IMG/VR virus record: IMGVR_UViG_3300022744_000004
Location: 1 to 64,000 of that record
From: a virus
Length of the DNA: 64,000 bases
Strand: one strand, 5' to 3'
The notes beneath the pieces were generated by a model. It ran no database searches. It was given only the letters and a program-made list of their open reading frames with translations, and was not told where the DNA came from. How positions within the stretch are numbered: position 1 is the stretch's first letter; each line of letters starts with the position of its first letter. This document shows, in pieces, positions 269 through 46,390 of the stretch. Made by a program: the position numbers and the translations under genes.

Positions 269-285
269 GCCGGTAGCCGACCGGC
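269..285. repeat. Second-family hairpin, copy 1
   Basis: Arms GCCGGT and ACCGGC enclose the loop AGCCG. It sits 7 bp from the first TAGGGACA palindrome, in the leader of the next leftward gene. A counterpart with a near-identical loop lies at 1294-1312, in the same order relative to its palindrome. Confidence 0.6.
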
Positions 286-292
286 GCGGTGG

Positions 293-317
293 CGGTAGGG
301 ACAAATTGTCCCTACCG
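293..317. repeat. TAGGGACA palindrome, copy 1
   Basis: Perfect 12-bp arms (CGGTAGGGACAA and its complement) around a single central A. It lies between the stop of the 58-residue gene and the start of the leftmost gene. It is the first of six related palindromes confined to the first 3.7 kb. There is no clear U-tract, so this is not a textbook intrinsic terminator; it could be an operator, RNA-processing hairpin or anti-termination site. Confidence 0.8.
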
Positions 318-341
318 TGCGCTCTTAGCGGCGCTTAAAAA

Positions 342-353
342 TCATGACTGCTG
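342..353 (-). repeat. CAGCAGTCATGA 12-mer, copy 1
   Basis: Reads CAGCAGTCATGA on the leftward strand. The exact 12-mer recurs at 1344, 2627 and 45385, always in the same orientation. Here it lies between a stop codon and the TAGGGACA palindrome. Confidence 0.6.
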
Positions 354-359
354 GGCGTG

Positions 360-536
360 CTACTCCCAGTCGTTCTGTTCTTCTTCCCACTCACGCTCGT
401 ACCGATCTTCCCAGTACGCATCGACGTGCGCGGAATGAAGCGTTTCTTGCAGTGCATCGTATTGCTCATCGTCGTCCAGTATGCGAGGCATACTGGCGAG
501 GGCAAGCAGGTTTGCGATGAAGGCTTTGCTGGTCAT
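360..536 (-). CDS. Hypothetical acidic protein
   Basis: A 58-residue protein. The ATG overlaps the upstream stop in ATGA, the usual coupling in this cluster, which favours this start over longer upstream forms. The second half is strongly acidic and ends in a Glu/Asp/Trp-rich stretch, a pattern seen in DNA-mimic and host-takeover proteins; that similarity is compositional only. No family recognised. It is third in a coupled group with the DUF2591-like gene and the 62-residue gene. Confidence 0.6.
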   Translation of the reverse strand: MTSKAFIANLLALASMPRILDDDEQYDALQETLHSAHVDAYWEDRYEREWEEEQNDWE

Positions 537-721
537 ACCTGCACCCCAATCATCATCCCTGCTGCCGCATAGCAACGGGCCAGTTCGGGGCGCACGTTGC
601 GCCAGTTCCCTACCCTGTCCTTCACCTGCCACGAGTTGTAGCGATGCGAGAAGCGCAGGTAGCGTCCGTCTTTGAGGGTGACGGAGTTCACGCGGTACGT
701 GGGTTTACGGTCGGCGGTCAC
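533..721 (-). CDS. Hypothetical small protein, GTG start
   Basis: A 62-residue basic protein starting at GTG inside the stop of the upstream DUF2591-like gene (GTGA overlap). It is rich in Arg, Tyr and Trp with short beta-prone segments and could bind nucleic acid, but no family is recognised. Its own stop overlaps the next ATG, so it is translationally coupled on both sides. Confidence 0.6.
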   Translation of the reverse strand: MTADRKPTYRVNSVTLKDGRYLRFSHRYNSWQVKDRVGNWRNVRPELARCYAAAGMMIGVQV

Positions 722-1041
722 AGCAACTCCTTCGGCACATCAACCTCGTCGCCCAGCTTGGATGCAACGTAGCAACGCATGGCCGCCCGTAGCGCAGTGT
801 CGCCACTGACCATGTAGCGCGGTTCGTCGTCATAGTTTTGGCTTGACCAAGAGAGCCACACGCCATCAGATTCAATCTCAATGCACAGCTTCTCCCGCTC
901 AATGATCGGGCCACCTTGTGCCCAGTCGCGGGAGTATTGGAGAAATTCTTTAACCTCGTTTCCGTAGGCGTTGACTCTCGGCCCCTCGCACTTCGCCACC
1001 GCCCAATCAAGTGCGGCACCTGTTAGTCTGTTTGTTTTCAT
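718..1041 (-). CDS. DUF2591 / NinX-like phage protein
   Basis: A 107-residue protein with features of the DUF2591 (NinX-like) family: a start with Leu-Thr-Gly-Ala-Ala-Leu-Asp-Trp-Ala-Val-Ala, a central Trp-Ala-Gln-Gly-Gly-Pro-Ile-Ile segment, and a C-terminus with Ala-Met-Arg-Cys-Tyr-Val-Ala-Ser-Lys-Leu-Gly. The family is common in early operons of phages infecting Proteobacteria; its function is unknown. The start has a strong GGAGATTGACATG context. Length is normal. It heads a coupled three-gene group. Family call is confident, role is not. Confidence 0.8.
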   Translation of the reverse strand: MKTNRLTGAALDWAVAKCEGPRVNAYGNEVKEFLQYSRDWAQGGPIIEREKLCIEIESDGVWLSWSSQNYDDEPRYMVSGDTALRAAMRCYVASKLGDEVDVPKELL

Positions 1042-1051
1042 GTCAATCTCC

Positions 1052-1264
1052 TTAGTGAATGGATGCTTCGTCGTACATATCGGGCAGCTCGCTTGCGTCT
1101 ACCCATGCCTCGCGGGCGATGGCGTCCTCCAGCCACGCCTTGATGCGCTCCTCTGTTGGCATCATGCCTATCGTCACGACGATACCGTCGATGACTACCG
1201 CGCCTATGTAGGCGTTGTTCTCCTCGCTCCAGCCATAGCGCGGCTGCGGTGTGTTTGCTCTCAT
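1052..1264 (-). CDS. Hypothetical protein
   Basis: A 70-residue protein with the GGAGATTGACATG start context. It is mixed alpha/beta with an acidic C-terminal half. Its leader holds the second copy of the two-hairpin element. No family recognised. Confidence 0.6.
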   Translation of the reverse strand: MRANTPQPRYGWSEENNAYIGAVVIDGIVVTIGMMPTEERIKAWLEDAIAREAWVDASELPDMYDEASIH

Positions 1265-1293
1265 GTCAATCTCCTATTAACGTACTAACGTAA

Positions 1294-1312
1294 TGCCAGT
1301 GGCCGACTGGCA
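1294..1312. repeat. Second-family hairpin, copy 2
   Basis: Arms TGCCAGT and ACTGGCA enclose GGCCG. The loop matches copy 1 at four of five bases although the stem bases differ, so base pairing is kept while sequence changes. It lies 5 bp from the TAGGGACA palindrome. Confidence 0.6.
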
Positions 1313-1317
1313 GCGGG

Positions 1318-1336
1318 TAGGGACAATGTGTCCCTA
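1318..1336. repeat. TAGGGACA palindrome, copy 2
   Basis: TAGGGACA-ATG-TGTCCCTA with perfect 8-bp arms. It is 28 bp past the stop of the 279-residue gene and about 50 bp before the next start, alongside a second-family hairpin. Confidence 0.8.
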
Positions 1337-1343
1337 GTTCGAT

Positions 1344-1355
1344 TCATGACTGCTG
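1344..1355 (-). repeat. CAGCAGTCATGA 12-mer, copy 2
   Basis: Exact copy on the leftward strand, 7 bp from the palindrome, between the stop of the 279-residue gene and the palindrome, as in copy 1. Confidence 0.6.
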
Positions 1356-1364
1356 ATGGGCGTG

Positions 1365-2204
1365 TCAGGCCCACTGAGGCGGCAGCCACACACGTTCTTC
1401 ATCAGGCGTGAGACGCGCGGCGGGCGGGTTGTTGTCCGCCTCGCGCAGCCGCTGCACCATCGGCGTGGGGCACAGCAAGCGCCAGTCCTTGGGCAGTTTG
1501 ACGTGGGCAGTGACAGCGCCTGATGTGCGCGTGTCGAGTTCTTTCAGTGCAGCCGAGGTGGCCGCAAGCTGGAGCGCAGAGTAGGGCGTCTCGGCCCATG
1601 TGTACTGACCGTCCGCCTTGGACTTGTCACAGCGGTGTAGCTCACGGTGCTCGATGATCGTGGCCTTCAGGGTGTTGGCTGCGTTGCGTATGGCCGCGCG
1701 ATCTGCGTCCGTGATGAACGGCGTGAACTGCTTACCCTTGTGCGTGGGGCGCTCACGATAGTAGGCGGCCACCGTTTCAAGCAAGGCATCACGCTCGGCA
1801 GGATCAATCCACGTCCACCATGCGTTCGCACGACATTCGGCCAGCAGTGGGCGGTCAGTCTCGGCCCGGCGTTTGTTGGTGGCGGCCCGGCGTTCTTCCA
1901 AGTCCTTGGGCTGCACTGGCTCGCCATCCTCCAGCAGGAGGCGTGATGCCTCTTCGATCTTGTCGATGGCCTTTTGTATTAGCACTGTGTATGCCTCGTA
2001 CATAGGCTCGGTAGGCTGTCCCGCACGCTTGGGGCGATTGGATGTGATGCTTGTACGTACTGCCTTTGCGCTGTTGAGCAGGGTGGCCCATGCGGTGGCA
2101 GGTTCTACACGGCGCTTGCGTGCCGTGGCGTAGGCGTTGATAACGGCCTCTGTAGTGTGGGGCGACACACCATGCGATAGCATGATGTCACGAAGAACGG
2201 TCAT
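1365..2204 (-). CDS. Hypothetical helical protein
   Basis: A 279-residue protein with no recognised family. The ATG is preceded by TTTGGAGTCCTTT, a good ribosome binding site; an in-frame extension of 31 residues runs into the noncoding gap and has no such site. It is rich in Ala, Arg and Glu, mostly helical, with a Trp-Trp-Thr-Trp cluster near the middle and a C-terminus rich in Pro and Trp. It is the largest gene of the left cluster and lies directly downstream of the 405-bp palindromic gap, whose leftward promoter activity would serve it. Confidence 0.65.
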   Translation of the reverse strand: MTVLRDIMLSHGVSPHTTEAVINAYATARKRRVEPATAWATLLNSAKAVRTSITSNRPKRAGQPTEPMYEAYTVLIQKAIDKIEEASRLLLEDGEPVQPKDLEERRAATNKRRAETDRPLLAECRANAWWTWIDPAERDALLETVAAYYRERPTHKGKQFTPFITDADRAAIRNAANTLKATIIEHRELHRCDKSKADGQYTWAETPYSALQLAATSAALKELDTRTSGAVTAHVKLPKDWRLLCPTPMVQRLREADNNPPAARLTPDEERVWLPPQWA

Positions 2205-2326
2205 AAAGGACTCCAAAAGTAAAGTTAGGTAGTACGTACTATACCTGCAAATTAGACATTCCGTTGGTATACGGGCATTTCTGCGTAGTACAGGCAAGGG
2301 GTTTGGGGTACAAAACCCTTATGTGA

Positions 2327-2338
2327 CAAGGACTTAGC
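2327..2338. repeat. Left arm of 12-bp inverted repeat
   Basis: CAAGGACTTAGC, exact reverse complement of the arm at 2497-2508. The two arms bracket the AT-rich core. Confidence 0.75.
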
Positions 2339-2403
2339 CGGGTCGCATAGCCGCAAACCACGGTTTCAGAAAAAACACACACACACCTACACATAGTATG
2401 TGT

Positions 2404-2421
2404 ATGTATATGCATATACAT
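2404..2421. repeat. 18-bp perfect palindrome
   Basis: ATGTATATG followed directly by its reverse complement, centred at 2412/2413 within the AT-rich core. It could extrude as a cruciform or bind a dimeric protein. Confidence 0.75.
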
Positions 2422-2496
2422 GGTGTTAGTAATACATACATACTCTCTCATATATATCTGTATTAAGTATATGTGTGTGTAGGGCGGCGTGAAATC

Positions 2497-2508
2497 GCTA
2501 AGTCCTTG
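2497..2508. repeat. Right arm of 12-bp inverted repeat
   Basis: GCTAAGTCCTTG, partner of the arm at 2327-2338. Confidence 0.75.
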
Positions 2509-2590
2509 ATTTCATTAGGAAAACGCCTTGGAGTATGTCGCCTGTACTGGTGCCAATACGCTAGTACACCTGTGGCGTGCTTCCGGTATG

Positions 2591-2615
2591 TACTAGGGAC
2601 TAATTGTCCCTAGTA
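2591..2615. repeat. TAGGGACA palindrome, copy 3
   Basis: Ten-base arms TACTAGGGAC and GTCCCTAGTA around TAATT. The TAG stop of the 71-residue gene falls inside the right arm, so the element overlaps coding sequence. Confidence 0.8.
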
Positions 2616-2825
2616 AGAAAAGCGAATCATGACTGCTGCGCGGCTGCGCTTGTACGTAATACGTACGTCACCAAAGTAGTGGGTCTGGTATGTGCCGCCG
2701 CAACGGGTTGCAGCAACGGGTGGGTTGAGCGAGTCGGCTATCTCACGGGCCTCGCGTTCGGACTGCAGCTTGGCAAGGATGCCGAGGTAGTGGTTGCTGC
2801 GGTTGATGGTGCGTAGTTGTGTCAT
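2610..2825 (-). CDS. Hypothetical small protein
   Basis: A 71-residue basic protein with the GGAGATTGACATG start context. It begins with an Arg-Thr-Ile-Asn-Arg-Ser-Asn-x-Tyr segment like one in the leftmost gene, followed by a helix and a beta-rich C-terminus. The repeated CAGCAGTCATGA 12-mer and the third palindrome encode its last residues and stop, so its C-terminus may have been shaped by the repeat. No family recognised. Confidence 0.6.
   Translation of the reverse strand: MTQLRTINRSNHYLGILAKLQSEREAREIADSLNPPVAATRCGGTYQTHYFGDVRITYKRSRAAVMIRFSY
2627..2638 (-). repeat. CAGCAGTCATGA 12-mer, copy 3
   Basis: Exact copy, here inside the 3' end of the 71-residue gene and 11 bp from palindrome copy 3. 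Confidence 0.6.
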
Positions 2826-2841
2826 GTCAATCTCCTAGAGG

Positions 2842-2860
2842 TAGGGACAATGTGTCCCTA
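2842..2860. repeat. TAGGGACA palindrome, copy 4
   Basis: TAGGGACA-ATG-TGTCCCTA with 8-bp arms, only about 17 bp upstream of the start of the 71-residue gene, so it could cover that ribosome binding site region. Confidence 0.8.
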
Positions 2861-2955
2861 GGGTTATGGGCAAGTCGCCCCCGATGCCCTGCACGCAAGG
2901 CACGGAGAGTTGGTTGTCACACGGGTTCTGTTACGGGTCGCGCGACTGTGACAAG

Positions 2956-3114
2956 TCACAGGTTGTGCAGCTTGGCATCACGGTATGCGATGAGCATGGC
3001 GCGTGCCTCGTCCTTGTAGTGCCGCGTCTCTGCGCCCTGTGCCCGCCAGAAGCGGAACGAACGCATGGCTTTGCGAAACATCTTGCGATAGAAGATGGTG
3101 CGGGTTGTCAGCAT
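2956..3114 (-). CDS. Hypothetical small basic protein
   Basis: A 52-residue protein with a GGAGAATCTC ribosome binding site before ATG. It is strongly basic (many Arg and Lys) with aromatic residues through the first half, consistent with a short helical nucleic-acid or RNA polymerase binder, but no family is recognised. Its stop overlaps a small palindrome (CTGTGA-CAAG-TCACAG). Confidence 0.55.
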   Translation of the reverse strand: MLTTRTIFYRKMFRKAMRSFRFWRAQGAETRHYKDEARAMLIAYRDAKLHNL

Positions 3115-3230
3115 GAGATTCTCCAAAATACACCGTAGGGAAAAGGAATGGGCGATGATGGGGGCGTGGTGCTGCGAAACCCGCCAGCCCCCATCGAACG
3201 TGAGCGCTCACTAACATATACAGCGCAAGA

Positions 3231-3255
3231 TACTAGGGACATTGTGTCCCTAGTA
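3231..3255. repeat. TAGGGACA palindrome, copy 5
   Basis: Eleven-base arms TACTAGGGACA and TGTCCCTAGTA around TTG. It starts one base past the stop of the 140-residue gene. Confidence 0.8.
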
Positions 3256-3256
3256 A

Positions 3257-3679
3257 TTAGATGGCAGCCTTGATGTCAGTCTTAGTCCAGCCCTGAGCCA
3301 TCAACTCTGCAACGATGGTTGCCATGTACTCTTTCAGCGCCTTCTGGTCAGCGCTCAGCTTCTTGCCAGCCTTGGTCACCTCGCCAGTCTGCTCGGCAAC
3401 AGCGCCATAGTCCGGGTCTGTATAGCGCATCATGCGGGACACCGCCTTCTTGAATGCGCTGTCCTGCGCAGGCTTGCCATTCTCTGTAACCTGCTTGCGA
3501 TACTCTGGCTTCTTGGCAAGCAAGGCAACTTGGATGTACTCGCGGGCAGTGTCCGCGTCGAGTTGCTCGGCTGCACGATAGGCCCGCACCTTTGCACAGG
3601 CATCATCGAAGGATAGGAACCCGTCAACCATCTGGTTGATAGCGGTAGTGATAGCGTTGACTTGGATAGCGATAGACAT
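3257..3679 (-). CDS. Hypothetical early protein
   Basis: A 140-residue, mostly helical protein with no recognised family. GGAGTTTTTACT precedes the ATG. It has an N-terminal helix, a Lys-rich middle and a C-terminal helical end with a Trp-Thr-Lys-Thr-Asp motif. It is the first gene of the left-going cluster, next to the divergent control region, with palindromes on both sides; that position suits an immediate-early gene. Confidence 0.65.
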   Translation of the reverse strand: MSIAIQVNAITTAINQMVDGFLSFDDACAKVRAYRAAEQLDADTAREYIQVALLAKKPEYRKQVTENGKPAQDSAFKKAVSRMMRYTDPDYGAVAEQTGEVTKAGKKLSADQKALKEYMATIVAELMAQGWTKTDIKAAI

Positions 3680-3710
3680 AGTAAAAACTCCTAAAGGATA
3701 GTGAAAAGCA

Positions 3711-3731
3711 CTAGGGACAATGTGTCCCTAG
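3711..3731. repeat. TAGGGACA palindrome, copy 6
   Basis: CTAGGGACA-ATG-TGTCCCTAG, 9-bp arms. It lies in the leader of the first leftward gene with no leftward gene upstream, so this copy cannot be a gene-end terminator; this argues for an operator or leader role. Confidence 0.8.
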
Positions 3732-3984
3732 CGATGGAATCGAACCCGATTTCCATGATTAAAGTATGCAAAACCGTGGTAATCGGGGGTATTTCAGGGG
3801 TCTGATGTCCCTAAATCGGGGGCTGGTTGACCCACCCCACCCCAACCCCCCAAGAAATGATGACCCTGTGCATCGCGCGTAAAACACTATTCCTCAACCG
3901 GCCTCCACACTTTGCTTAATTTTTAAGCTAGTACATACCAAAAATTTTTTGCAAAATTTTCCGACAAAAATTGTCAACTATTTG

Positions 3985-32731: not shown

Positions 32732-34516
32732 ATGAACACACTACCTTCCCCCCAAGGAATTGCTGCCGCCTACCAAGGCAACCCGCAGCCGCTGCAACAA
32801 AAAGTCCAGAAGCAAGGCGCTGGCCCACAAGGGCTGCCTAACGATCTGGTTGACGCGTTGGCGTTACAAATGGTCTTGCAGCAACAGACTGCTGCAAAGA
32901 ATCAACTCGCTATGCAGCAAGGCGGGCAGAAGCCGGACATCGTGAGTCAGTTGCGCGATCAGGCGGTTGGTAACGCACGCAGCGACATCCAGCAGAAGCT
33001 GGGTGCGCAGGCGCAACAAGCACAACAGCAGCAAGGGCTGCAGGCGCTGGCGCAGCAGGGTGGCGCTCCGCAAAGTGGTGGCGTTGATCATCTGCCTTCT
33101 GGTGTCGGCCAGCACCTAGCTGGCGGCGGGATTGTGGCGTTTAGCGGGGAAGACGAAGATCAAGTTGTTGACGGCGACACCTCGCAGTTGTCAAAAGACT
33201 GGCAGGCGTTCACCAAGCCGTACGACACGGCCAAAGGGGAGCGGGCAGCGGAAGAGAAGCGTATCAATGCCATAGCGCAGGCCGCACGCGACCAGCGAGC
33301 ATTGGAAGAAGCACAGCAAAAAGCCGCAGACACGGCTGCCGGGCCGTTGGGCTACGCCTTCTCCCCCGCATCGCAATACAAGGATGCGCAGTACGTGCTG
33401 CAGAACCTAAAAGGATCGCGCAACTACGACAACGAAACCAAGCGTGGCATCGCTGCGCTTGCAGACGCCGCGAGCACTGCACCGGCGGTGGATGACCGCA
33501 CTCGCCGCACCCCGTCTTTGTACCGGTCGGACGCAGCCTCCCCCAACGCAGAAGCACAACGTGCGCTATCTCTGTACATGGCGAAGCACCCGGAAGCTGC
33601 CGGTGGCCCGATGGCGGTAAGTGGGCAAGCAGCCCCCGGCGCGGGTTCGTCACACCTGTCTCCGGCCGACTCCAAGTTCACACAGGACTACCAGAAGATT
33701 CTGTTGCAACAGTTGGGGGCAGACCCGCTTGCCTCGCAAAACCGCGCCGCCGACTACGAGCGTACTACGGTCGGCGCACAGCCTATTCTTGACGAGCAGA
33801 AACAACGGGCGCTTGCGCTGCAGCAACTGCAAGAGCAGCAAAAAGGGTTGCGTAACCCGACGTACGAGTTCTTGCGCGGTATTGCCGAAAGCCGTCCCGG
33901 CTGGGGTGGTATGGGTATGCAGATGCTGGGCGGCGCAAACCGCTACAGTGATGCTAAGACCAAGTGGGGCGCGGAAGATGTCACGAACCAAGAGGGCATC
34001 GACAAACTGTTGAACGCAGTGGGCACAGCCCAAATCGCCGCAAATACAGGCGTTGCCAAGGCTGGGCAACAAGGCTACTCCGACGCAGCCCGCCTGCTTG
34101 GCACGGCGCTTACCGCCGGTGCCAGCGAGTCTGGGCGCATCGAAAGCGCTGCACAACGTGCCGAAGCTGCGCGGTACGCCGCTGATGAGCGCCTGCAAGC
34201 AATGCGCGAGCGCATGGCAAATGCCGCAAACACGAGTCAAGCTGCCAAGGCCGCCGAGATCCGCGCACAAGCGCAGGAGACTGTGGCTGTCATGCGCGAC
34301 CTGACGACAGAACTGGACAAGATTGATCCGGGCATGGCGATGGCTGACAAGAATCTTGCCGCACGCCGCACCGCACTGCAAAATGAGATCGGTATGTGGC
34401 GCTCGCACTTGGCAAAACTACACGGGGTGTCCGCCGATTCTGGCGCCGGGGCAGCAGGTGGCGCAAAACCGTCCATGAAATACAATCCGCAGACTGGAAA
34501 ACTAGAGGCCATTTAG
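32732..34516 (+). CDS. Large helical internal virion protein (putative)
   Basis: A 594-residue protein, Gln/Ala-rich and mostly helical, with long coiled-coil stretches (especially 40-130 and 330-560) and a C-terminus ending in Tyr-Asn-Pro-Gln-Thr-Gly-Lys-Leu-Glu. That ending is common in phage ejection proteins. It lies between the 687- and 2818-residue proteins and likely joins them in the head core. Confidence 0.65.
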   Translation: MNTLPSPQGIAAAYQGNPQPLQQKVQKQGAGPQGLPNDLVDALALQMVLQQQTAAKNQLAMQQGGQKPDIVSQLRDQAVGNARSDIQQKLGAQAQQAQQQQGLQALAQQGGAPQSGGVDHLPSGVGQHLAGGGIVAFSGEDEDQVVDGDTSQLSKDWQAFTKPYDTAKGERAAEEKRINAIAQAARDQRALEEAQQKAADTAAGPLGYAFSPASQYKDAQYVLQNLKGSRNYDNETKRGIAALADAASTAPAVDDRTRRTPSLYRSDAASPNAEAQRALSLYMAKHPEAAGGPMAVSGQAAPGAGSSHLSPADSKFTQDYQKILLQQLGADPLASQNRAADYERTTVGAQPILDEQKQRALALQQLQEQQKGLRNPTYEFLRGIAESRPGWGGMGMQMLGGANRYSDAKTKWGAEDVTNQEGIDKLLNAVGTAQIAANTGVAKAGQQGYSDAARLLGTALTAGASESGRIESAAQRAEAARYAADERLQAMRERMANAANTSQAAKAAEIRAQAQETVAVMRDLTTELDKIDPGMAMADKNLAARRTALQNEIGMWRSHLAKLHGVSADSGAGAAGGAKPSMKYNPQTGKLEAI

Positions 34517-42974: not shown

Positions 42975-43152
42975 ACAGCACGCCCAGCATACCGTTGTAC
43001 GCCCCCACCCTTGCACGGATGGGGGCGGCACTACCCAACACCTTCTTGCCCTGTTTGATGCCTGCCGTGGCGAGTAGCCACGGCTGCAGGGACGCCACGA
43101 AGAACGACTCGCCCGGCTTACACCGGTGCCACGGCAACGTCAGGCGGTTCAA
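42919..43152 (-). CDS. Small protein overlapping two genes (TTG start)
   Basis: A 77-residue protein. The TTG start has GGAGACGAAGCACG upstream and lies inside the end of the primase gene; the 3' end overlaps the last 56 bases of the giant virion gene on the opposite strand. Residues 12-22 (Lys-Pro-Gly-Glu-Ser-Phe-Phe-Val) and Gly-Met-Leu-Gly-Val-Leu-Phe-Thr match a small family seen in other phages beside replication genes, which supports it being real. Function unknown. Confidence 0.55.
   Translation of the reverse strand: MNRLTLPWHRCKPGESFFVASLQPWLLATAGIKQGKKVLGSAAPIRARVGAYNGMLGVLFTVKPPRHSEPPPDTASQ
43000..43027. other. Hairpin between convergent blocks
   Basis: An 8-bp stem CGCCCCCA/TGGGGGCG with a 12-base loop, placed where rightward and leftward blocks meet. 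There is no T-run on either strand, and it lies inside the 77-residue gene, so a terminator role is uncertain. Confidence 0.3.
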
Positions 43153-46090
43153 CGTGCTTCGTCTCCATAGTGATCTTCAGGCACAGCACGCGCATCGCAG
43201 GCCCACCGGTATGCGCCAGCAAGTCCTTACGCACGGGCGGCCCGACCGACACGCCGGGGATATTGCCCAGCTCGCGCTCGAAGTCCAGATAGCTGTAGCC
43301 GATGGCGGCGCAGTGGATTTTGAGCAGCTTGATTTCGATGTAGTAGTCGCTGTAGCCCGGCGCGATCTCGTACTCGATGCGCCCCCGCACGGCTGACTTG
43401 GTGCGGGTGGCTGGCTGCACAAGGTGCGACAGGTTGAACTTCTGGGCGGCGCTGCAGTCAATCATCACGAAGTTGCCGACGAACTCGCGGGTGTAGGCGT
43501 TCAGCACATCCAGCGCGTCAGACATATTGGACTTGATCACGGAGCGCATGTCCTTGACCAGCCCGTGCAGGAAATTGAAGATCGGCTTGACCGGCACGTT
43601 CAGGATGTTCGCGTATTTGGGGCCGAGCAGGATGGCCGCAGTGATGATGGACACGATGCCATATATCCAGAAGCGCTCGTTGTCATCCGCCTTAGTTTCT
43701 TCACGCCAGTTCTTCTCGACCCAGCGGAACACCTCTTCTGCGGTGTCCATATTCTTCTGCAACCACCGAATCCACTTGCGCCCGGCAATGCCGTAGTTGT
43801 CGTTGATCAGTTTGATTGTTTCGCTTTCCTCGGGCGTCCACTTGATCTTCCAGTTCGCTGGCAGCTTCCACTCGATTACCCGGCGGGCCTCGCCCAGCGA
43901 TGTGTGCTCCCGTGCCCCCATCATGGCTTCCAACTGCGGGTCGTTGGAGGAGATCATGCTGAAGGACTTCCATGTGCAGTTCTGCGTGATCTCGGCGTTG
44001 CCTGAGTTCGACCCCTTGACCTTGTGCGCTCCGTGGCCGAAGTCGTACACGAAGTTGGGTAGCCACTCGCCCTTGGACTTGCGGTTCTTGTCGGTCACTT
44101 CATCGACGTGCATGTGCAGGCTGTGCAGCATACCGGCCCGCTGCATCATGGTTGTCTCGGAGGTCTTGTTGCCGACCATCATGCCCTTGGGGTGGCCCCA
44201 CACCGAGTTCGCCATGAACGATGCCAGCGTCTTGCCAGCGCCCGACTCCTTGCCGCACAGGTGGAAGGTTATGGCGTCTGCGCCGTCCGGTGCGAAGCGC
44301 ATCAATGGTGAGGCAAACCCGATCAGGCCCGCCGACACATGGCCCCACATCAGCGGCGTGGTGGATGCCTTCTTGATCATCATCTCAAACACACGCCGCC
44401 AGTTCTCGAAGGTGCCGCGCGGCAGCGTGGCGTCGATCACGTTTTCAAGGCGCTCGGACTTGTAGGTGTAGTCGTGCGCTTCTCCCTTGGGGCTATACAC
44501 CGTGTCGCCCACGGCGAAGGAGTCGTCATACTGCCAGCCCAGATGGGGCGGCACATTGACGTGCTTGCCGGTGCTACTAGCTTCCGACACGCAGGCGCGG
44601 ACATACGCCGCCAGATATGAATCGCAACCAGCCCCGCCAACAGCGACCACGTTGTTCTTGGCGAGCACTTTGGTGATTTCCTTGGATGCGCCCATCGTGT
44701 CTGTCGGCACTCCAAAGGAGTAGAAGACGTTATTCTTCACAGCAACAAACTCTGCTGTGTACTGCGGGCCGTCACTGAACATACGCGTCATAAAGAAGTC
44801 GTAGTTCGTGAGCATGATAAGCGTGGGAGGTTCGTTGGGTTTGTCCGACTGTTTCTCGTAATAGAGGCCGCCGTTTTGTCCGAAAGAAAAGCCGCGTGGT
44901 GGCTTCGGACGGATATAGCTCTGTTGGGGTTCTGGCAACTCGGCATCAGTCTGGGGCGCATACTGGACGACTGTCTCTTCTTCCACCGTCTTGACCACAC
45001 GCCCCAGCGCCAATGGGTTTGTGATCTTGCCTTTGTGTGGGCAGCCATCGCAGCCGCCTTCGTTCTCGGACTCAATCGCCAAGCAGGAGTACGGCCCCTT
45101 GATGGCGTTGAGCTTGGTGTTCATCCGATCGTAGTCGTACGGGTGCAAGTCGCTCAGTATCTTGGATGCCTTGGCTGAGTCTTCGCAATACTTTGCTATG
45201 GACAACCATGCACGCCAGAACGGCTCCATGCCGTCATCACTGGCCCGGTCGATGTAGGCTGACAACTGCGGGCACCCGGTGCCCTGCGAGGTGCGCACCA
45301 TGATGTTCTTGAAGTACGTGACGTTGTTGCCTGCCATCGCCTTTGCGATTGGCGACATCTCGGTGCTGGGCCGCTTGCCGGGAATCATGACTGCTGTGCT
45401 TGTTTGCTTGGGCACTGGGGCGGCGTGCTCGCTCAGGCAGGCGGCGATGGCCTCCAGATCAAACACACCCCCACGCTGGCGCAGAACGACCTCCTTGGGG
45501 TCGCCATACTTCCAGTTGCTGGTGCCCGGCGTGCGCAGCACACGCGCGGCATCGGACGTGACCTTCTCATCAATCGGAAAGCCGAACGCCTTGGCAGCAC
45601 GCTTCAATGCCACCGCCACGGGCCGCCATGCCTCGATAGGCACGTCTTCGCGCAGGGGGAAGTACACATGCACGCCTCCGCCGGAGTCAACCAGCCACGG
45701 CATTCCTAGCGCATTGAGGTCGGTCTTTTGCAGGAACGCGTGCAACTGCTCCACAGCCGCCCGCTTGCTGGCAAACGACTTCTCCTTCCAGTGTGCTGGT
45801 ACGAGCGTGTCATTGACCATCTTCTCTTCGACCCACTCCTTGCCGCAGTCCAGATCGAGAAACAACGCCCGCATGTAGCGGGCGCTGGTGGCTTCTCTGG
45901 TGCCGCTATCGTCAAAGGTAGCGAGCGCGTGGAATACGTTGAGGCGCTGGGAGCTGAAGTTGAGCGCCGTTGCGTACAGATTGTCGATGTCGTCTACAAA
46001 TACCTGCTTGAAGGGCTTGCCGTTGCGCAGTGTGAATACGCAATACTTCCCTGTAGTCGGCAGCACCGCCGACAGAAAATCCAAAGCCAT
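43118..46090 (-). CDS. Primase-helicase (AEP primase fused to SF3/DUF927-like helicase)
   Basis: A 990-residue replication protein. The N-terminal archaeo-eukaryotic primase has Phe-Leu-Asp79-Leu-Asp81-Cys-Gly, then Ser-Gly-Gly-Gly-Val-His-Val-Tyr (136-143) and Arg-Thr-Pro-Gly-Thr-x-Asn. A middle region with Cys-x-x-Cys may bind zinc. The C-terminal helicase has a Walker A near 615 (Gly-Lys-Glu-Ser-Gly-Ala-Gly-Lys-Thr). It should prime and unwind DNA for the family A polymerase encoded upstream. The start has the GGGGATGACATG signature. It carries copy 4 of the CAGCAGTCATGA 12-mer in its coding region. Confidence 0.85.
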   Translation of the reverse strand: MALDFLSAVLPTTGKYCVFTLRNGKPFKQVFVDDIDNLYATALNFSSQRLNVFHALATFDDSGTREATSARYMRALFLDLDCGKEWVEEKMVNDTLVPAHWKEKSFASKRAAVEQLHAFLQKTDLNALGMPWLVDSGGGVHVYFPLREDVPIEAWRPVAVALKRAAKAFGFPIDEKVTSDAARVLRTPGTSNWKYGDPKEVVLRQRGGVFDLEAIAACLSEHAAPVPKQTSTAVMIPGKRPSTEMSPIAKAMAGNNVTYFKNIMVRTSQGTGCPQLSAYIDRASDDGMEPFWRAWLSIAKYCEDSAKASKILSDLHPYDYDRMNTKLNAIKGPYSCLAIESENEGGCDGCPHKGKITNPLALGRVVKTVEEETVVQYAPQTDAELPEPQQSYIRPKPPRGFSFGQNGGLYYEKQSDKPNEPPTLIMLTNYDFFMTRMFSDGPQYTAEFVAVKNNVFYSFGVPTDTMGASKEITKVLAKNNVVAVGGAGCDSYLAAYVRACVSEASSTGKHVNVPPHLGWQYDDSFAVGDTVYSPKGEAHDYTYKSERLENVIDATLPRGTFENWRRVFEMMIKKASTTPLMWGHVSAGLIGFASPLMRFAPDGADAITFHLCGKESGAGKTLASFMANSVWGHPKGMMVGNKTSETTMMQRAGMLHSLHMHVDEVTDKNRKSKGEWLPNFVYDFGHGAHKVKGSNSGNAEITQNCTWKSFSMISSNDPQLEAMMGAREHTSLGEARRVIEWKLPANWKIKWTPEESETIKLINDNYGIAGRKWIRWLQKNMDTAEEVFRWVEKNWREETKADDNERFWIYGIVSIITAAILLGPKYANILNVPVKPIFNFLHGLVKDMRSVIKSNMSDALDVLNAYTREFVGNFVMIDCSAAQKFNLSHLVQPATRTKSAVRGRIEYEIAPGYSDYYIEIKLLKIHCAAIGYSYLDFERELGNIPGVSVGPPVRKDLLAHTGGPAMRVLCLKITMETKHVEPPDVAVAPV
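45385..45396 (-). repeat. CAGCAGTCATGA 12-mer, copy 4
   Basis: Exact copy within the primase gene, same orientation as the three left copies but 43 kb away, without the palindrome. Confidence 0.55.
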
Positions 46091-46102: not shown

Positions 46103-46390
46103 CTAGATCAAAAGCAAGGGTGGAATATACGCCTTCGCGCCCTGCAATTCCACGATTTCTTCTTCTGTTCCTGTGCGCAACTTGTGGATAAGTGCCTGCA
46201 CATGAGCCTTATACGCCTTCGACACTTCGGCCCCGGCAAACCAGTTGTAAACCGTGGCGCGTGACGCGCCGGTAATAGTGGCGATCTGTTGGACAGACAG
46301 CCCTTTTGATACAGCGAGTTTGGCTAAGCGTGTCCCCTGTCCTTGGGAAGCCTGCTTAGCCAACCGCTTCGTTTTGAAGTGGTAACCCAT
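46103..46390 (-). CDS. HTH DNA-binding protein
   Basis: A 95-residue protein with a clear helix-turn-helix at about residues 31-51 (Val-Gln-Gln-Ile-Ala-x-x-Thr-Gly-Ala-Ser-Arg-Ala-Thr-Val-Tyr-Asn-Trp). The basic N-terminus may help DNA contact. It is coupled to the tiny membrane gene upstream and sits just before the primase. It could be a transcription regulator of this operon or a replication initiator helper; an XRE/Cro-like fold is likely. Confidence 0.75.
   Translation of the reverse strand: MGYHFKTKRLAKQASQGQGTRLAKLAVSKGLSVQQIATITGASRATVYNWFAGAEVSKAYKAHVQALIHKLRTGTEEEIVELQGAKAYIPPLLLI

What the first reader, a model, noticed from the sequence alone, without database searches (positions are those of the whole stretch)
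293..3731. Six palindromes built on TAGGGACA-N3-TGTCCCTA confined to the left 3.7 kb
Six copies (293, 1318, 2591, 2842, 3231, 3711) lie at gene ends or leaders, one overlapping a stop codon. Arm lengths run from 8 to 12 bp, with extra matched bases added outward (for example TAC...GTA), which suggests the pairing is selected. No U-tract follows, and copy 6 has no upstream leftward gene, so a simple terminator role is unlikely. I saw no copy in the structural or replication blocks. Candidate roles: operator for a phage repressor or anti-repressor, RNA-processing or anti-termination site.
Basis: partly seen in the sequence, partly recalled or inferred. Interest (0 to 1): 0.75.

Follow-up and report, generated by a model that had tools for sequence, protein, structure and literature searches.

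The report
Phage-specific operator set with cognate gene
Six identical palindromes near one end of this virus are most likely DNA docking sites for a small, previously undescribed early phage protein encoded between two of them, and across dozens of related phages the recognition half of that protein and its docking sites change together.

Summary
The six TAGGGACA-N3-TGTCCCTA palindromes are real (0.13 matches expected by chance; none elsewhere in the 70,157-base genome). They belong to a lineage-wide system. About 35 of 80 relatives sharing the terminase carry 3-10 palindromes per phage left of terL; arms are nearly constant within a phage, spacers vary, and arm sequence differs between phages. 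The terL-proximal copy lies in the leader of the first leftward gene ("gene 1", window 3257-3679) and another directly follows its stop. Gene 1 is an undescribed family (no Pfam, PHROG, PDB-fold or isolate-phage match). Palindrome sequence tracks gene 1's N-terminal domain (partial Mantel r=0.27, p=0.0002), not its C-terminus, TerL or TerS; natural domain swaps show the same. Flank pairing does not exceed within-phage shuffling and arm mutations are mostly uncompensated, so these look like dsDNA operators for a dimer, not hairpins. Best explanation: gene 1 makes a dimeric, autoregulated DNA-binding protein acting inside transcribed early DNA, probably as an RNA-polymerase roadblock. Binding partner: supported by covariation, untested. 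Roadblock: inferred. Closest known: cluster A stoperators and the unexplained Corndog palindromes.

The parts
3711..3731 (.). Site 6, leader site of gene 1: CTAGGGACA-ATG-TGTCCCTAG, 52 nt before the gene 1 ATG
3231..3255 (.). Site 5, directly after the gene 1 stop codon: TACTAGGGACA-TTG-TGTCCCTAGTA
2842..2860 (.). Site 4, directly before the ribosome-binding site of the gene at 2610-2825
2591..2615 (.). Site 3, overlaps the stop of the gene at 2610-2825; centre TAATT; in relative G001 the centre differs (TAACT on the transcript strand)
1318..1336 (.). Site 2, between the genes at 1365-2297 and 1052-1264
293..317 (.). Site 1, 12-bp arms, between the gene ending at 360 and the gene starting at about 235; in G001 the same place holds CGGTTAACGCTGTTAACCG instead
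3257..3679 (-). Gene 1, 140 aa, proposed palindrome-binding protein; AF2 all-helical N-domain (residues 3-87, pLDDT about 90) plus C-terminal helices; family of 54 loci
3763..3768 (-). Weak candidate -10 box (CATACT) of the gene 1 promoter; most relatives have a clear extended -10 (TGnTATAAT) about 30-44 nt upstream of the site, the window's own box is poor
   Evidence: sequence; relatives
2956..3126 (-). Small leftward gene between sites 5 and 4
   Evidence: ORF
2610..2825 (-). Small leftward gene between sites 4 and 3
   Evidence: ORF
1365..2297 (-). Leftward gene between sites 3 and 2; only 52% identical in G001 although flanks beyond the sites are nearly identical
360..1264 (-). Operon of small leftward genes between sites 2 and 1 (1052-1264, 718-1041, 533-721, 360-632)
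   Evidence: ORFs
46103..46390 (-).

Best explanation
The palindromes are two-fold symmetric double-stranded DNA operators for a dimer of the gene 1 product (window 3257-3679), the first gene expressed leftward from the early block. The N-terminal helical domain of gene 1 reads the half-site; the C-terminal part does something else. The sites lie inside transcribed DNA: one about 25-35 bp downstream of the start of transcription of gene 1 (deduced from relatives with a clear -10 box), one right behind its stop, the rest at gene junctions of the early block. The most likely action is to obstruct elongating host RNA polymerase, giving negative autoregulation of gene 1 and shut-off of the early genes. 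Specificity changes fast: gene 1 N-domain and the sites switch together, leaving fossil sites of the former type. Shown here: presence, distribution, symmetry without site-level pairing, and covariation with the gene 1 N-domain. Inferred: physical binding, dimerisation, roadblock action, timing.
For: Six sites, none elsewhere in the genome. Relatives carry phage-specific palindrome families at the same place, up to 10 per phage against usually 0-2 (4 at most) in shuffles, with spacers varying. A family palindrome is in the gene 1 leader in 31 and within about 85 nt after its stop in 40 of 54 loci (my count). Partial Mantel: palindrome similarity with gene 1 N-term given TerL r=0.27 p=0.0002; C-term p=0.33; TerL p=0.63. 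TerS, the neighbour on the other side, p=0.33, while gene 1 N given TerS stays p=0.0002. Automated family calling: r=0.24 p=0.0004; sites beyond 250 nt from gene 1 only, r=0.17 p=0.008. Natural swaps: L141/L126 TerL 0.99, N unrelated, palindromes differ; L153/window N 0.80, C unrelated, palindromes differ by one pair; L107/L109 C 0.78, N unrelated, palindromes differ; L115/L141 N 0.37, C 0.01, same palindrome. Fossil and tandem sites in L141 and L143. Flank pairing 293 vs 306 shuffled; 48 one-arm variants vs 4 two-sided. Extended -10 upstream of the leader site, median 38 nt. No integrase in 18 records.
Against: No binding or expression data. Gene 1 has no recognisable DNA-binding motif and no PDB fold match; the AF2 models are monomers with pTM 0.56-0.60. 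The Mantel correlation is modest (about 0.17-0.28). Near-identical palindromes occur with unrelated N-domains (window, L001, L027), so the mapping is not one to one. Spacers vary by one in a few phages (L078, L087), unusual for a rigid dimer. The gene 1 family was gathered by iterated HMM search and some members are very divergent. In Pag-Yong1 sites also lie in the late block and in coding DNA, which fits early shut-off less well. The window's own promoter box is weak.
Confidence: 0.6

Rival explanations
1. The sites are bound by the gene 1 product, but for a purpose other than blocking transcription, such as genome compaction, marking of phage DNA, replication or packaging.
For: In the isolate Pag-Yong1, 37 near-matching sites (17 perfect by my count) are spread over the whole 65-kb genome, some inside late genes. 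Cluster O authors judged transcription regulation unlikely for their similar repeats (PMC4351075).
Against: In the window lineage the sites are confined to the early block and to gene junctions, and the one most tightly placed sits about 30-44 nt behind a promoter -10 box.
Confidence: 0.2
2. The palindromes are RNA hairpins between genes (processing, stability or antitermination sites).
For: They lie in transcribed gaps directly behind stop codons, and some copies have longer arms. A true covarying hairpin does lie beside two of them.
Against: Flank pairing equals within-phage shuffling, A-C mismatches on the transcript strand (87) outnumber G-U (37) just as in shuffles (86 and 38), and arm variants are mostly uncompensated. 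Stem sequence is constant while the spacer varies. No Rfam match above a gathering score; only 3 of 33 post-gene-1 sites precede an intrinsic terminator by a strict rule.
Confidence: 0.08
3. The sites are operators of another regulator, such as the HTH protein at 46103-46390.
For: That HTH protein is present in 8 of 10 compared records.
Against: Its recognition helix is nearly constant while the palindromes differ completely; palindromes track gene 1 N-domain instead.
Confidence: 0.07
4. They are recombination linkers that let early genes be exchanged as cassettes, kept alike by gene conversion.
For: Between G000 and G001 the gene between sites 3 and 2 is replaced (52% identity) with breakpoints near the sites.
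Against: Spacers differ between copies in one genome while arms are constant, which conversion would not leave; covariation with gene 1 N-domain is unexplained.
Confidence: 0.05

Closest known systems
Stoperators of cluster A mycobacteriophages (L5-type repressor; PMC9283540, PMC6550527)
   Same: Many short repressor sites in intergenic transcribed DNA, phage-specific sequence that diverges together with the repressor, proposed stop of elongation.
   Different: Stoperators are 13-bp asymmetric sites bound by a monomer with an HTH plus a stoperator domain, oriented with transcription, in temperate phages. Here the sites are symmetric, the protein has no HTH signal and no integrase was found.
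17-bp repeats TGTTCGG-N3-CCGAACA of cluster O mycobacteriophages (Corndog; PMC4351075)
   Same: Dyad-symmetric sites, constant arms, variable 3-nt centre, concentrated in a leftward block, many intergenic, not obviously temperate.
   Different: No cognate protein or function known there; about one third of sites are in coding regions. Here a cognate gene is proposed from covariation.
SAS/ESAS of cluster K mycobacteriophages (PMC3203893; details from my own knowledge)
   Same: Repeated leader element with an inverted repeat upstream of starts; the window also repeats GGAGATTGACATG before four genes.
   Different: Sites here are as often behind stops as before starts, and the sequence differs per phage.
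N4 virion RNA polymerase hairpin promoters (own knowledge)
   Same: Short stem with 3-nt loop in the early region of a 70-kb phage.
   Different: No RNA polymerase of the T7 type found (weak test as its controls did not ring); the largest protein carries only LPD38; stems, not loops, are conserved.
Roadblocking C protein of the Kpn2I restriction-modification system (PMC6237814, abstract only)
   Same: Small protein reported to affect transcription of its own gene by acting as an elongation roadblock.
   Different: Different protein family and a restriction-modification system, not a phage-wide site set.

Membership tests
Cluster A stoperator system | asymmetric site oriented with transcription | tested here: not met
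   sites are two-fold symmetric
Cluster A stoperator system | repressor with N-terminal HTH | tested here: not met
   gene 1 has no HTH by Pfam or fold search
Cluster A stoperator system | many sites in transcribed intergenic DNA, phage-specific and diverging with the regulator | tested here: met
Cluster A stoperator system | stops transcription elongation | not testable with these tools
   needs reporter or RNA-seq
Cluster O (Corndog) type repeats | dyad-symmetric arms with variable short centre, many copies per genome | tested here: met
   comparison text
Cluster O (Corndog) type repeats | same site sequence TGTTCGG-N3-CCGAACA | tested here: not met
   half-sites listed
RNA hairpin element | pairing conserved beyond sequence (compensatory changes, G-U on transcript strand) | tested here: not met
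Intrinsic terminator | U-tract after the stem | tested here: not met
   sequence; a strict terminator stem with T-run follows only 3 of 33 post-gene-1 sites
N4-type hairpin promoter | phage single-subunit RNA polymerase encoded | tested here: inconclusive
   PF00940 absent but control genomes did not ring either; LPD38 only in the 2818-aa protein
Temperate-phage repressor/operator | integrase or prophage state | tested here: not met
   no tyrosine integrase in 18 records; only four MAG contigs among genomes; serine integrases not searched

The most novel reading that the evidence does not exclude
Virulent phages of this lineage use a new fold of DNA-binding protein (gene 1) with a swappable recognition domain and a genome-borne site set that re-tunes together, forming heterotypic 'immunity groups' without lysogeny: early gene 1 protein of the first phage silences the early genes of a superinfecting phage of the same site type.
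Probability: 0.2. Interest if true: 0.9.

Novelty: new variant of a known kind. Interest (0 to 1): 0.74.

Why it matters
Dispersed dyad sites in phages that do not seem to be temperate (Corndog) have stayed unexplained because nothing pointed to the binding protein. Here sequence covariation over dozens of phages, with natural domain swaps, points to one small protein family without a known DNA-binding fold. That makes the question directly testable by a gel shift with matched and mismatched pairs. It could also yield a large set of orthogonal regulator-operator pairs.

Tried and rejected
RNA hairpin with selected pairing: rejected by shuffle and compensation counts. N4-like hairpin promoter: no support; the giant protein is LPD38 and the RNAP search is uninformative. 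HTH protein 46103 as binder: helix nearly invariant; HTH 56517: found with a good score in only two of ten relatives. Terminator directly behind the post-gene-1 site: seen by eye in several phages but only 3 of 33 by a strict rule, so dropped. tRNA-like T-arm at 3731-3757: ARAGORN finds no tRNA there. Rfam: nothing above gathering. First Mantel run used a TerL filter that removed too many loci; repeated with better filters and automated sites. Unrelated phages with 23-bp-spaced GGGACAAnTTGTCCC arrays (L009, L017, L020, L026) share the motif but no terL relationship was seen; not pursued. Host identification: only MAG contigs.
Full report
OBSERVATION. The six palindromes are present as described. 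A scan with up to three mismatches gives six matches in the 64 kb against 0.13 expected in shuffles. An exact scan of the whole 70,157-base record gives the five exact cores, all at the left end. Arms are 8 to 12 bp; copy 3 is imperfect at the centre.

LINEAGE. A viral-contig pattern scan returned 62 stretches. Several are relatives of the window phage: G001 (L031/L059, 69,211 bases, 6 copies), G002 (L007, 5 copies), L027 (4) and L001 (5), all beside the terminase genes. In the last three the outer pair of most copies is C..G instead of T..A. I then fetched 80 contigs encoding a TerL 50-83% identical. About 35 of them carry at least three copies of a repeated palindrome left of terL, with a different sequence in each phage: GGTTAGA-N3-TCTAACC, AAGTGTGAC-N5-GTCACACTT, GGGGGAGA-N2-TCTCCCCC, TGTTGAC-N5-GTCAACA, GGGACGGA-N2-TCCGTCCC and others. 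The maximum is ten per locus; shuffled controls usually give 0-2 and once 4. Within a phage the arms hold while the central bases vary. In the longer records examined, the main family is confined to this block. The cultured Planktothrix phage Pag-Yong1 (OL906435), of the same gene order, has 37 near-matching GGTTCAG-N1-CTGAACC sites over its whole genome.

GENE 1. The terL-proximal site is in the leader of the first leftward gene, window 3257-3679, and another site follows its stop codon. This gene is a divergent family found in 54 of 85 loci by iterated HMM search. By my count, a family palindrome is in the leader in 31 loci and within about 85 nt after the stop in 40. Pfam, PHROGs and isolate phage genomes give no convincing relative. 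AlphaFold2 gives all-helical models, pLDDT 82 and 85, pTM 0.56 and 0.60, without a PDB match (profile search).

COVARIATION. I compared pairwise similarity of palindromes, of the first 95 residues of gene 1, of its last 40 residues, and of TerL. With 43 non-redundant loci, palindrome similarity follows the N-terminal part given TerL (partial r=0.27, p=0.0002, the floor of 5,000 permutations). It does not follow the C-terminal part (p=0.33) or TerL (p=0.63). The small-terminase gene, on the other side of the leader site, shows nothing (p=0.33), and the gene 1 signal stays when TerS is controlled. Half-sites in that test were written by hand, so I repeated it with automated calling: r=0.24, p=0.0004, and r=0.17, p=0.008 when only sites more than 250 nt beyond gene 1 are used. 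That argues against simple linkage. Individual cases say the same. L153 and the window share TerL and N-domain but not the C-terminus, and their palindromes differ in one pair (TAAGGACA, TAGGGACA). L107 and L109 share the C-terminus but neither N-domain nor palindrome. L141 and L126 have nearly the same TerL, unrelated N-domains and different palindromes.

SWITCHING. L141 and L143 are about 90% identical over 4.8 kb of the late block and again just behind gene 1, but the palindrome behind gene 1 is GGGGGAGA-N2 in one and GAGGAC-N5 in the other. At a further shared place both phages carry both palindromes in tandem; the cognate one is intact and the other has lost the right spacing (L141 near 2621, L143 near 2725). 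L141 still holds two intact GAGGAC-N5 sites and L143 one intact GGGGAG site. G000 and G001 show a related exchange: two orthologous places hold TAGGGACA-type and GGTTAAC-type palindromes the other way round, although their gene 1 proteins are 96% identical; this remains unexplained.

DNA OR RNA. If hairpins were selected, bases outside the core should pair within a site more than between sites of the same phage. They do not: 293 Watson-Crick pairs observed against 306 after shuffling right flanks within each phage (35 phages, 156 sites). G-U and A-C mismatches are both at the shuffled level. Variants of the core are one-sided in 48 cases and two-sided with pairing in 4. This is the pattern of half-sites read by a dimer on double-stranded DNA. 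The window alone shows a slight, non-significant excess of pairing (p=0.12).

POSITION AND ACTION. A promoter with an extended -10 (TGnTATAAT-like) lies upstream of the leader site in most relatives, with its -10 ending a median 38 nt before the site (mean score 10.0 against 8.6 in shuffles). So the leader site is at about +25 to +35, where a bound protein would obstruct elongation rather than initiation. The window's own box is poor. The other sites are at gene junctions inside transcribed early DNA. From this I infer a roadblock that limits gene 1 and the early genes; this step has no direct evidence. No tyrosine integrase was found in 18 records and the only hits in bacterial genome assemblies are four MAG contigs, so the phages are probably virulent, which removes the usual lysogeny rationale. 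Superinfection control between virulent phages would explain the fast change of specificity, but is speculation.

RIVALS. The HTH protein at 46103-46390 is conserved in the lineage but its recognition helix hardly changes. Non-transcriptional use of the same sites remains possible, mainly because Pag-Yong1 has sites in late and coding DNA. A linker or recombination role is suggested by one exchanged gene between sites 3 and 2 but does not explain constant arms with variable centres.

KNOWN PARALLELS. Cluster A stoperators share dispersion and co-divergence but are asymmetric and bound by an HTH-containing monomer (PMC9283540, PMC6550527). The cluster O repeats are the closest in form; their authors predict a dimeric binder, find no function and doubt a transcription role (PMC4351075).

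LIMITS. Everything here is sequence comparison. Mantel tests use non-independent pairs and the correlations are modest. Near-identical palindromes occur with unrelated N-domains (window, L001, L027). Most relatives are metagenomic fragments without a known host.

Noticed in passing
window 269-285 and 1295-1311 (- strand); G000 record 67421-67437; G001 32300, 32764, 35608: A second hairpin GCC-N-GT-CGGCC-AC-N'-GGC lies about 5-11 nt downstream of three palindromes in each phage. N-N' is G-C, A-T or T-A, with compensatory double changes between orthologous copies, so unlike the main palindromes this one looks like a selected hairpin.
   Followed up: partly
G000 record near 67445 (outside the window) and G001 32737-32755: A single GGTTAACGCTGTTAACC palindrome sits where the other phage has a TAGGGACA palindrome, at two swapped orthologous places. 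Could be a fossil of an earlier specificity or a site of a second regulator.
   Followed up: partly
window 351, 1353, 2636, 45394, 60209 and record 67231 (- strand): The motif GCAGTCATGA occurs six times, all on the - strand, three of them shortly before a palindrome, some inside coding sequence.
   Followed up: no
window 235, 1041, 1264, 2825 (- strand starts): Four small genes share the leader GGAGATTGACATG, reminiscent of start-associated sequences of cluster K mycobacteriophages.
   Followed up: no
L141 reverse-complement 7765 and 8453; L143 reverse-complement 14173 and 14788: Two closely related phages each carry leftover operator sites of the other's specificity, some intact and some with changed spacer.
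   Followed up: partly
L009, L015, L017, L020, L026, L046, L056 and similar: Other phages, with no terL relationship seen, have tandem arrays with 23-bp period of GGGACAA-n-TTGTCCC-like palindromes, probably an operator array of another regulator.
   Followed up: no
window 46103-46390: Small HTH protein beside the DUF927 protein gene (43118-46090), conserved in 8 relatives with a nearly invariant helix TGA-RQTVYNW.
   Followed up: partly
OL906435 (Planktothrix phage Pag-Yong1), OQ594354, PP438419: Three records of 65,014 bases under different host names encode an identical first early protein; they may be the same phage.
   Followed up: no
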